A stretch of DNA of 64,000 nucleotides from Paramacrobiotus metropolitanus (Eukaryota > Tardigrada > Eutardigrada > Parachela > Macrobiotidae): contig NW_026570284.1 in NCBI RefSeq assembly GCF_019649055.1, forward strand, positions 558,001 through 622,000, given 5' to 3'. Numbering within the stretch: position 1 is the stretch's first letter; each line of letters begins with the position of its first letter. This document shows, one piece after another, positions 30,501 to 34,317 of the stretch. The notes below the pieces were generated by a model. That model saw nothing but the letters and a program-made list of their open reading frames with translations, did no database searches and had not been told where the DNA came from. Both the position numbers and the translations under genes were made by a program.

Positions 30501-33500
30501 TCACGCAATGTTTCCGGAGCCGCTTAATCTATCGGCCAAAGCGCCGAGGATGCGTAGGTGGGATGCGCTGCCGCTTTGCAACAAGGCATCCTGGAAATCT
30601 TCCATATTTATCACGTAGCCGTCGCCATCTCCACCGGCATGCCTGCTGCAATGGAATGCCAGCATTACAAGAAACACAGACACGGTGAAACCTAATGCAG
30701 TTAAAAAAACGCTACCAAGAAAACGCTACGCAATCCAAAACTAAAAACTGAAACGTTAAATTAACGAATAGAACGTATCGTTTTGTTTTTTGTAACCTAA
30801 AAAGAAAAGCTTTAATCACGGTGGATAAATAAGTAAACGCACAGAGCGAGCGAATAGAATATATTATTAATTTTCATATTTGAAATCCAAAAATGTGAAC
30901 ACTGTAGTTATCAGAGTCAACAAATTAATCGAAGAAGTCAACGTACTGGGTTTGGTTATTCTGCTCTTCCATATCCTCGGAACGATGAAAACAGCGTACA
31001 GCTGCTTTTCGGCACAGCTCATGCAAATCGGCACCGGAAAATGTTTCCGTCTGAGCGGCTATCACATTTAACTCAACATCCAGAGCCAACTGAAAGCACC
31101 AAATATCAGCACTGTCCACTAGTCATGAAACTGTATCAAATAATATTAGATAGACACAACAGGAAATCCTAGTGACAAAGTATATTCTGCGGTGACAACC
31201 AAACGGTAATGTTACGAACTTTTCAGATTACCATACCCGGTGCCACCAGCATCGTAAATCTTGAAGTTTTTCTTAACAGAATACAAACTAACCATACCTG
31301 CTCTTTCGCGAGGATTTTCTGCAGTATGAGTGCTCTTTGGCTAATATCCTACGGTGGAAAAGCCAAAAAGAGTAAATAATATGTCATTAATAATCAGGGA
31401 ATCCTAATTGCTCTGAGTCCTAGGTCTAATCAGTTGTACCGGATATCCAATACAGAATGCGCAAGGCAAACGCCGTCGGATTGCATCATCAACATCTTGG
31501 GGCCGCTGTAATCATGCACGCATACATCAGCAATGGTGTATAAATTATTTATAACATTGATCTTCTAATCATGTGGAATAATGTAAAATAACAACGAAAC
31601 CAAGGGTTTTAGTTAATACGGCAGCTATTGAAGCCGGATAATATGTATATTCGAGTAACGATCTAAAGTGATCCCATCAATTAAAAAGAAAATTGAATTT
31701 AACGTACATTTGTCGCACCAAGCACCACAATTTTCGTGTCAGAGCTGGATATTAATCCATCCCAGAGGCTCAAAAACTGAGCTTTCATCATGGCAGTCAC
31801 TTCATGATCGCCGCGGTCCCGAATTCGCAAAAAGGCATCTGTAGGTGTACACCACAATAACCAAACCAACCAAGTCAGGAACAGAAAAGAAAAAAGCCAT
31901 CAAATGTGAAACAGTAATTATCTTACCGATTTCATCAATAAAAATTATAGCTGGTTGAATTTTCTCAGCTAAACTGAAAACGGCTGCGGCAAGCTTCTGA
32001 GATTCTCCGTACCATTTGTCAGTTAGTGTCGACAATTGTAAATTGATAAACCGAGCATCTGTAACGAACAAGCATGTAACAATTAATACTCGTACACATG
32101 TTGGTCTAAAATCTATGCCCTTTCTTATTAAACTGCAAACAGTGAGAACTTCAACGCTCTAATTTTTTCAAACATAATTTTGATCAGTGTAGAAAGTGTA
32201 TCTCGTTTACATCCACAGCATTTTTACGAATGTAAATAAAAAGCCGTTCTCGACAATACGACTTTCCGTTTCAAATTTGACACGCATTAAATCGCGGAGA
32301 ATGCATACCTGCTTCCTTGGCCAATGCCTTTAGCCAACATGGTTTTGCCACAACCGGGCGGACCATACAGCATCACACCTACAATCGTAAATCTTGAAGT
32401 TTTTCTTAACAGAATACAAACTAACCATACCTGCTCTTTCGCGAGGATTTTCTGCAGTATGAGTGCTCTTTGGCTAATATCCTACGGTGGAAAAGCCAAA
32501 AAGAGTAAATAATATGTCATTAATAATCAGGGAATCCTAATTGCTCTGAGTCCTAGGTCTAATCAGTTGTACCGGATATCCAATACAGAATGCGCAAGGC
32601 AAACGCCGTCGGATTGCATCATCAACATCTTGGGGCCGCTGTAATGCACGCACACATCAGTATTCGTGTATTAATTATTTACAACACTGAATCACTGATC
32701 GTCTAATCATGTGGCATAATGTAGTAAATAATAATGAAACGAAGGATTCCAAATAATACGATAGCTATTCAACCAATTCCTAGTGACATTACCCAGGATA
32801 AATCATTATATTCGAGTAACGATTATCAAGTGATACTATCAATCAAACAGAAAACTGAATTTATCGTACATTTGTCGCACCAAGCACCACGATTTTCGTG
32901 TCAGAACTGGATATTAATCCATCCCACAGGCTCAGAAACTGAGCTTTCATCATGGCCGTCACTTCATGATCGCCGCGGTCCCGAATTCGCAAAAAGGCAT
33001 CTGTAGATGTACATCACAATAACCAAACCAGTCAAGTCAGGAGCGAAAAAGAAAAAACCATCAAATGTAAAACCGTAATTATCTTACCGATTTCATCAAT
33101 AAAAATTATAGCTGGTTGAATTTTCTCAGCTAAACTGAAAACGGCTGCGGCAAGCTTCTGAGATTCTCCGTACCATTTGTCAGTTAGTGTCGACAATTGT
33201 AAATTGATAAACCGGGCATCTGTAACAAAAAAAGCATGGAACAATTAATACTCCTACACATGTCGGTCTAAAAATCTATGCCGCTTTCTTATTAAACTGC
33301 AAACAGTGAGGCAACTTCAACGCTCTAATTTTTTCAACCATAATTTTGATCAGTAAAATGTAAAGTGAGTGTATCTCGTTTTGTTACATCCACAGCATTT
33401 TTACGAATGTAAATAAAAGCCGTTCTCGACAATACGACTTTCCGTTTCAAATTTAGACACGATACGCATTAAATCGCGGAGAATGCTACTGTACCTGCTT

Positions 33501-34317
33501 CCTTGGCCAATGCCTTGGCCAACATGGTTTTGCCACAACCGGGCGGACCATACAGCATCACACCTACAATAGAAATCCTGATTTACACTCAAGTCCGGAC
33601 AATTATTTATCAATACTGTAGTTAGTGAAAACTGCAAACTGTTCCAATCCGCAAAAGTGACCAAATAATCACTCACAAGTCACAAAAAACCAATAATTTT
33701 AGCATCGATTGTAAGCGTCAGCAGAACAGAGCGAAAATACTTCGACCATTGCGATTTTATTTAATAAATTGACATACGAAGGTAAAAACGACCCAATTTA
33801 CAGAATCGAAGAAAAACGCTACGTTTTGAAACCAGGTTCCGCAGTGGTACCCACAGTCTGTCAAACCTAAGCACAGGCACAAGTATAATCATTGATTTAC
33901 CTTTAGGAGGCTGGATAAGCGAAGACGCTCGGGAATCCGCTCGTCGTCGCAATGGCGCCAGGACAGTTCGGCGCAATTCTTCAATCGTACTTTCCAAACC
34001 ACCGATGTCATCCCAGTCCACAGTTATAGTGGAGGGTTCCACTAGATTCGTCGCCACGAACATTTCATGCTCAGATAAATGTATATCAGGTGAGAGTCCC
34101 AGTCGGACGAAGAGATCTCGAGCCTACACACAACAAGCGCGAACTATGATTATCCGCCAAGAAGACTGGAAAGTGTCTGTACCCGTTTCTCGGCCTCCAG
34201 TCGCTGTTTTCGGTTAGGCTCGATAATTTCCCGAATGGCTTTCCATGTCATGTAGGACAAGGCAACACATAGAGCGAAACGGACACTCAAACTGACAAAC
34301 TCTGGATTCACTGGCAT
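30501..34317 (-). CDS. ATAD1: ATAD1 (Msp1-type) outer-membrane AAA+ extractase, with a tandem duplication of exons 3-7
   Basis: Nine exons in phase give 363 residues, close to the human length: 34317-34183, 34123-33901, 33563-33495, 33219-33088, 33000-32870, 32638-32573, 32481-32431, 31089-30947 and about 30642-30501. The N terminus has a transmembrane segment ([14 protein letters not shown]) followed by [15 protein letters not shown]. The AAA domain has Walker A GPPGCGKT, the pore-loop region [15 protein letters not shown], Walker B IIFIDEI, sensor 1 GATN and [14 protein letters not shown], followed by the lid [18 protein letters not shown]1/Msp1 is anchored in the mitochondrial outer membrane and peroxisomes and pulls out mistargeted tail-anchored proteins. 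A second set of exons 3-7 lies between 31251 and 32385, and its Walker A exon is frameshifted. Exon phases still allow exons 4-7 of either set to be used. An in-frame ATG at 34404 would add 29 residues. Confidence 0.93.
31251..32385 (-). repeat. Tandem duplication, copy A (ATAD1 exons 3-7)
   Basis: This 1.1-kb block repeats 32384-33570 in direct orientation. It carries exon copies at 32378-32309 (exon 3, 70 instead of 69 bases), 32058-31927, 31838-31708, 31505-31440 and 31348-31298, all with intact splice sites. Relative to copy B, exons 4 and 5 differ by one and five substitutions, all synonymous. Exons 6 and 7 are identical. Introns differ by substitutions and indels. Confidence 0.9.
32309..32378 (-). 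pseudogene. Frameshifted second copy of the ATAD1 Walker A exon
   Basis: The exon matches 33495-33563 except within the stretch just after the Walker A lysine-threonine codons. There it reads GCTAAAGGC where the intact copy reads GCCAAGGC, one base more. The reading frame is lost before the exon end. Its acceptor and donor are still present. Inclusion after exon 7 would also be out of phase, so transcripts using it should be non-productive. Confidence 0.8.
32384..33570 (-). repeat. Tandem duplication, copy B (ATAD1 exons 3-7)
   Basis: This is the intact copy of the duplicated block, about 50 bases longer than copy A because of intronic indels. At the junction near 32381-32390, sequence that follows exon 3 in copy B (ACCTACAAT) runs directly into sequence that precedes exon 7 in copy A (ATCGTAAATC). 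The parental edges share only AT, so the joint looks like a two-base microhomology end-joining product. Confidence 0.88.

What the first reader, a model, noticed from the sequence alone, without database searches (positions are those of the whole stretch)
31251..33570. Tandem duplication of ATAD1 exons 3-7 with synonymous-only divergence in exons 4-7
A 1.1-kb block holding five exons of the AAA domain occurs twice. Across 380 bases of exons 4-7 the copies differ at six sites, all synonymous, while introns differ by many substitutions and indels. Exon phases allow exon 3 (copy B) to join exons 4-7 of either copy and then exon 8, yielding the same protein. Synonymous-only change suggests both copies have been under protein-level constraint, or that they are two alleles placed side by side by the assembler.
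Basis: partly seen in the sequence, partly recalled or inferred. Interest (0 to 1): 0.75.

Follow-up and report, generated by a model that had tools for sequence, protein, structure and literature searches.

The report
Two alleles assembled side by side
Five exons of a mitochondrial quality-control gene appear twice in this tardigrade genome, most likely because the assembly software laid two versions of the same gene end to end, so it is an ordinary artefact and not a new gene arrangement.

Summary
The repeat is in the sequence: 31251-32383 (copy A) and 32384-33570 (copy B), each with exons 3-7 of an ATAD1/Msp1 gene on the minus strand. (1) The left 260-262 nt are identical, intron parts included. 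(2) Exon 3 of copy A carries a 1-nt frameshift, and splicing 7B to 3A gives an immediate stop. (3) Indels lean towards losses in copy A (21 of 28). (4) A second pair lies 3 kb away in a BTB-domain gene: its 181-nt exon is identical in both copies and breaks the frame, a multi-copy element sits between, and 19 of 21 indels are losses in one copy. Two of 24 sampled 10-kb stretches held any comparable pair, both repetitive DNA. The genome matches Paramacrobiotus metropolitanus TYO, whose published assembly came from about 3000 pooled animals, nanopore reads, Canu set to preserve heterozygous variation, and HaploMerger2. Best reading: a false heterotype duplication (two alleles in series). No reads were available to prove it. 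Confidence 0.85.

The parts
31251..32383 (-). copy A of the repeated block (exons 7A-3A in + order)
32384..33570 (-). copy B of the repeated block (exons 7B-3B in + order)
31251..31512. part of copy A identical to 32384-32645 (262 nt by ungapped extension; 260 nt before the first gap in the gapped alignment), with exons 6-7 and intron sequence
34183..34317 (-). ATAD1 exon 1 (start codon at 34317)
33901..34123 (-). ATAD1 exon 2
33495..33563 (-). exon 3, copy B (69 nt, open)
33088..33219 (-). exon 4, copy B
32870..33000 (-). exon 5, copy B
32573..32638 (-). exon 6, copy B
32431..32481 (-). exon 7, copy B
32309..32378 (-). exon 3, copy A (70 nt: 1-nt insertion relative to copy B, frameshift)
31927..32058 (-). 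exon 4, copy A (one synonymous difference)
31708..31838 (-). exon 5, copy A (five synonymous differences)
31440..31505 (-). exon 6, copy A (identical to B)
31298..31348 (-). exon 7, copy A (identical to B)
30928..31089 (-). ATAD1 exon 8, followed by a stop
36546..37160 (+). second side-by-side pair, left copy (BTB-domain gene; exon 36678-36858)
37161..38536 (.). copy of a multi-copy element lying between the two copies of the second pair
38537..39123 (+). second side-by-side pair, right copy (exon 38655-38835 identical to the left exon; 19 of 21 gap events are losses here)

Best explanation
This is a false 'heterotype' duplication. Two diverged alleles of one ATAD1/Msp1 gene, roughly 7-11% apart at silent sites, were laid one after the other when a heterozygous long-read assembly was reduced to a haploid one. 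Shown: the architecture, the frame-breaking consequences, the lopsided deletions, the second pair next door, and the published assembly route of the matching genome. Inferred: that the two copies are alleles, and that the join was made during Canu assembly or HaploMerger2 merging and not in the animal.
For: 1) With every splice site of the model present, splicing 7B to 3A puts exon 3A out of phase and stops at once; exon 3A also carries a 1-nt frameshift. 2) 6 of 6 differences in exons 4-7 are synonymous (chance 1.4e-4 to 2.9e-4). dS is 0.109 in exons 4-5 and 0.073 over exons 4-7, of the order of the substitutions in introns 3-5 (40 of 532 sites; 0.127, 0.103 and 0.024 for introns 5, 4 and 3). 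No indel falls in exons 4-5, where about 13 are expected from the intron rate (P 2.6e-6). The copies diverged while both were constrained, as alleles do. 3) The pair is a mosaic: 260-262 nt identical with 138 intron sites unchanged, then strongly diverged. 4) Gaps are lopsided: 21 of 28 are losses in copy A (20 of 27 without an end effect, P 0.019), and 19 of 21 are losses in the right copy of the second pair (P 2e-4), as residual nanopore consensus error would give (that error profile is recalled). 5) The second pair, 3 kb away, again has an identical exon (181 nt) that stops the frame if both copies are read, in a gene with a BTB domain (E 1.6e-12), and a multi-copy element between the copies. 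6) Base rate: 2 of 24 sampled 10-kb stretches passed the filter: one an element with multi-copy terminal repeats, one a satellite-like array, leaving 0 of 24 with a single-copy pair. 10 of 10 Cpn60/TCP1 gene loci (50 matches) show no repeated profile segment (read by eye). 7) The genome matches P. metropolitanus TYO: five DM-domain matches, two on C5 at 2.135 and 2.163 Mb, against two DMRT paralogs on scaffold 5 near 1.96-2.37 Mb and three other DMRT genes; contig C1 of 4,484,719 against a longest scaffold of 4,484,941. That assembly used DNA of about 3000 animals, R9.4 reads, Canu 'with options preserving heterozygous variations' and HaploMerger2. A later study found a single-nucleotide insertion misassembly that frameshifts another of its genes.
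Against: No reads were available, so half depth and spanning reads are untested. There is no N at the junction or anywhere in the window. The start of B has an imperfect match of 12-14 nt to the sequence just past the end of B (the BLASTN hit runs past the unit), which a real microhomology-mediated duplication could also leave. Silent divergence of 7-11% is high for alleles in a strain founded from one pair. Redundancy of the published assembly is low by BUSCO (1.05 orthologues; CEGMA 1.24). In the moth study with the same Canu options, HaploMerger2 gave fewer, not more, misassembly candidates than purge_dups.
Confidence: 0.85

Rival explanations
1. A real tandem duplication born by unequal exchange or microhomology-mediated joining between two diverged haplotypes, so the copies were already that far apart at birth. 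The gene would work only if splicing skips one block.
For: Same divergence pattern as alleles; imperfect similarity at the breakpoint; no N gap.
Against: Linear splicing gives an immediate stop and exon 3A is frameshifted. It needs a second frame-breaking event 3 kb away in another gene. It does not explain the lopsided deletions.
Confidence: 0.1
2. An older real tandem duplication kept as alternative exon cassettes (copy A or B used in different transcripts) with recent gene conversion of the left 262 nt.
For: Exon 3B joins exons 4-7 of either copy in frame with the same protein; synonymous-only change; identical left block.
Against: Both choices give the same protein, so I see nothing to select for. 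Exon 3A is broken. The splice sites of both copies look alike; I did not search for signals of mutually exclusive splicing.
Confidence: 0.03
3. A homotype false duplication: one haplotype written twice, with all differences being uncorrected read errors.
For: Indel-rich, deletion-biased differences, above all in intron 3 (6 substitutions, 13 gaps; 11 of 13 losses in A) and in the second pair (13 substitutions, 21 gaps).
Against: Introns 4-5 have 34 substitutions against 13 gaps, and the exon 4-7 differences are synonymous only, which errors would not respect.
Confidence: 0.02

Closest known systems
False heterotype duplication (PMC9516828, passages seen)
   Same: Two alleles assembled as paralogs, with most exons of a gene repeated beside themselves (their ZBTB11 case in zebra finch: 9 of 11 coding exons).
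   Different: Half read depth and a gap between copies are listed there as primary characteristics. Depth is untested here and there is no N at the junction.
Merging of overlapping divergent contigs by HaploMerger2 (PMC9526047, passages seen)
   Same: The same Canu batOptions followed by HaploMerger2 version 20161205; [quoted passage not shown]
   Different: A moth assembled from PacBio reads; there HaploMerger2 gave fewer misassembly candidates than purge_dups. Whether HaploMerger2's authors describe this tandem form I could not look up (paper not held).
ATAD1/Msp1 AAA ATPase
   Same: Best solved-structure match is the outer mitochondrial transmembrane helix translocase, E 5.1e-100.
   Different: Nothing in the protein predicted from copy B that bears on the finding was seen; the C-terminus beyond residue 306 was not compared.

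Membership tests
false heterotype duplication | copies differ like alleles (silent and intron differences, protein conserved) | tested here: met
   6 of 6 exon 4-7 differences synonymous; dS 0.073-0.109 against 40 of 532 sites in introns 3-5
false heterotype duplication | half read depth over both copies / one-copy k-mers | not testable with these tools
   no reads held
false heterotype duplication | gap between duplicated pairs on one scaffold | tested here: not met
   the two ATAD1 blocks abut and the window holds no N; listed in PMC9516828 as a primary characteristic, which lowers the formal claim; gapless joining in a long-read assembly could account for it (inference)
false heterotype duplication | assembly made without full haplotype separation from heterozygous or pooled material | tested here: met
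   published pipeline of the matching assembly: about 3000 animals, Canu heterozygous options, HaploMerger2; identity of G000 inferred
functional tandem exon duplication | duplicated exons keep the reading frame when spliced in order | tested here: not met
   7B to 3A gives an immediate stop; exon 3A frameshifted
functional tandem exon duplication | transcripts use both copies | not testable with these tools
   no RNA reads held
ATAD1/Msp1 | sequence similarity over N-terminal segment and AAA domain | tested here: met
   residues 32-306 align to 8vxt chain A, E 5.1e-100

The most novel reading that the evidence does not exclude
A real tandem block formed by unequal exchange between two strongly diverged haplotypes in a tardigrade, carried in the population as a copy-number polymorphism and tolerated because splicing skips one block.
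Probability: 0.1. Interest if true: 0.4.

Novelty: not a real feature. Interest (0 to 1): 0.12.

Why it matters
It warns against reading exon-level duplications in this tardigrade assembly as biology, and it shows signs that need no reads: neighbouring copies with synonymous-only differences, frame-breaking phases and deletion-biased indels in one copy. If the duplication were real it would be a rearrangement between haplotypes, testable with reads already deposited (PRJDB7223, named).

Tried and rejected
Considered and rejected: mutually exclusive exon cassettes (same protein from either copy, exon 3A broken); a purely error-made second copy (introns 4-5 are substitution-rich and exon changes synonymous). 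A similar-looking pair in a sampled stretch on C25 (L005, also in L018) turned out to be terminal repeats of a multi-copy element, so it was not counted as the same kind; the L016 hits are a satellite-like array and were likewise not counted. The 24 stretches were picked by hand, not drawn at random, and a pair running over the edge of a stretch would be missed. Further self-matches of at least 100 nt in L006, L007, L010, L012, L013, L017, L023, L025 and L029 fell below the filter (300 nt, 85% identity, no overlap beyond 50 nt, within 8 kb). L018 held another pair at 76.7%, also below it. A weak pair in the window (49780-49908 / 53176-53304, 74%) was not pursued. The AAA family search scored only 19 of 139 candidates, so I used it for no count. 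BLASTN gives 61 mismatches and 19 gap openings for the ATAD1 pair and 21 and 14 for the second pair; my global alignments give 47 substitutions and 28 gap events, and 13 and 21. One of the 28 gaps is a 2-nt end effect of where I cut copy B. The species label rests; the first suspicion came from recall of a 170-Mb tardigrade genome. The contig count differs (533 here, 684 published), which I take, untested, as a filtered copy.

Full report
What is there. On the minus strand at 34317-30928 lies an eight-exon gene (exon model set by hand) whose predicted protein (323 aa) is closest, among solved structures, to the outer mitochondrial transmembrane helix translocase ATAD1/Msp1 (E 5.1e-100). Between exons 2 and 8 the sequence holds two blocks head to tail, 31251-32383 (A) and 32384-33570 (B), each with exons 3-7 and GT/AG at the exon borders. 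The DNA search of the 169.8-Mb assembly with the whole 2320-nt stretch listed one match, the window itself, and in the protein search the places at 70% identity or more are all on C64, the rest being at most 57% (50 matches).

Exons 4-7 (380 nt) differ at six sites, one in exon 4 and five in exon 5, all synonymous. A random change in exons 4-7 is synonymous with probability 0.228-0.257, so six of six has a chance of 1.4e-4 to 2.9e-4. Exon 3B joined to exons 4-7 of either copy and exon 8 gives the same protein.

First, divergence is a mosaic: the left 260-262 nt are identical, including 138 intron sites, whereas introns 3-5 have 40 substitutions and 26 gap events over 532 sites. Second, exon 3A is one nucleotide longer and frameshifted, and because exon 2 ends one base into a codon while exon 7 ends on a full codon, a transcript read straight through the assembly stops right after exon 7B. 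Third, gaps are lopsided, 21 of 28 being losses in copy A (20 of 27 without one end effect, P 0.019), and in intron 3 gaps outnumber substitutions 13 to 6. Fourth, a second pair lies 3 kb away in a gene on the other strand with a BTB domain (E 1.6e-12 for three joined exons): 36546-37160 and 38537-39123, with an exon of 181 nt identical in both that stops the frame at once if both copies are read. Between them lies 37161-38536, with five near-full-length relatives elsewhere at 87-92% identity and many partial ones (65 matches listed, itself included; 40 of 89 candidates scored). The repeated unit itself matched only this contig (5 matches, among them partial ones near 745-751 kb). 19 of its 21 gaps are losses in the right copy. 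The simplest picture is an allele without the element followed by an allele with it; that is inference.

How common it is. I picked 24 stretches of 10 kb, one of them on C64, and looked for pairs of at least 300 nt and 85% identity, overlapping by no more than 50 nt and within 8 kb. Two of 24 had any: one is an element with 335-nt terminal repeats found across the genome, the other a satellite-like array. None of the 24 has a single-copy pair like the two in the window, both of which meet the filter. The 20 kb on each side of the window shows only repeats below that filter. In 10 of 10 Cpn60/TCP1 gene loci (50 matches) no profile segment repeats within a locus, read by eye. The two pairs are thus unusual in what I sampled, and close together.

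Which genome. Five DM-domain matches, two of them 28 kb apart on contig C5 at 2.135 and 2.163 Mb, fit the two DMRT paralogs on scaffold 5 plus three other DMRT genes described for Paramacrobiotus metropolitanus (PMC11191345, passages). Contig C1, 4,484,719 long and the longest whose length I saw, fits the published longest scaffold of 4,484,941, and 169.8 Mb fits 170.5 Mb (PMC8277472, passages). The contig number does not fit directly (533 against 684). [quoted passage not shown] A coral study raises allelic duplications and false joins at the Haplomerger stage as a worry, though it judges most of its own tandem genes real (PMC10236652, passages). PMC11191345 reports a single-nucleotide insertion in this assembly that frameshifts another gene.

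Interpretation. Synonymous-only exon change, indel-free exons 4-5 (P 2.6e-6) and silent divergence of the same order as intron divergence (dS 0.073-0.109 against 0.024-0.127 per intron) show that both sequences diverged under constraint, which alleles do and a spare block inside one gene would not be expected to. Frame-breaking phases in two neighbouring genes and deletion-rich copies then favour alleles joined in series by the assembly over a real rearrangement. The steps shown are sequence facts; that the copies are alleles and that software joined them is inferred. Against it: no reads were seen, no N marks the join, silent divergence is high for a strain founded from one pair, published redundancy is low, and a short imperfect similarity at the breakpoint would also suit a real event.

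Noticed in passing
36546-37160 and 38537-39123: Second side-by-side pair, in a BTB-domain gene, with an identical 181-nt exon and a multi-copy element between the copies.
   Followed up: yes
37161-38536: Copy of a multi-copy element with five near-full-length relatives at 87-92% identity in the genome; class not determined.
   Followed up: partly
L018:1279-2994: Small element with 335-nt terminal repeats around a 1031-nt body; both parts are multi-copy, and many listed terminal repeats have no partner in the list.
   Followed up: partly
L016:1-10000: The whole 10-kb stretch is a satellite-like array with many overlapping self-matches.
   Followed up: no
47760-47879 and 51320-51765: Self-complementary (palindromic) stretches seen as minus-strand self-hits.
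   Followed up: no
49780-49908 and 53176-53304: Direct repeat pair, 129 nt, 74% identical.
   Followed up: no
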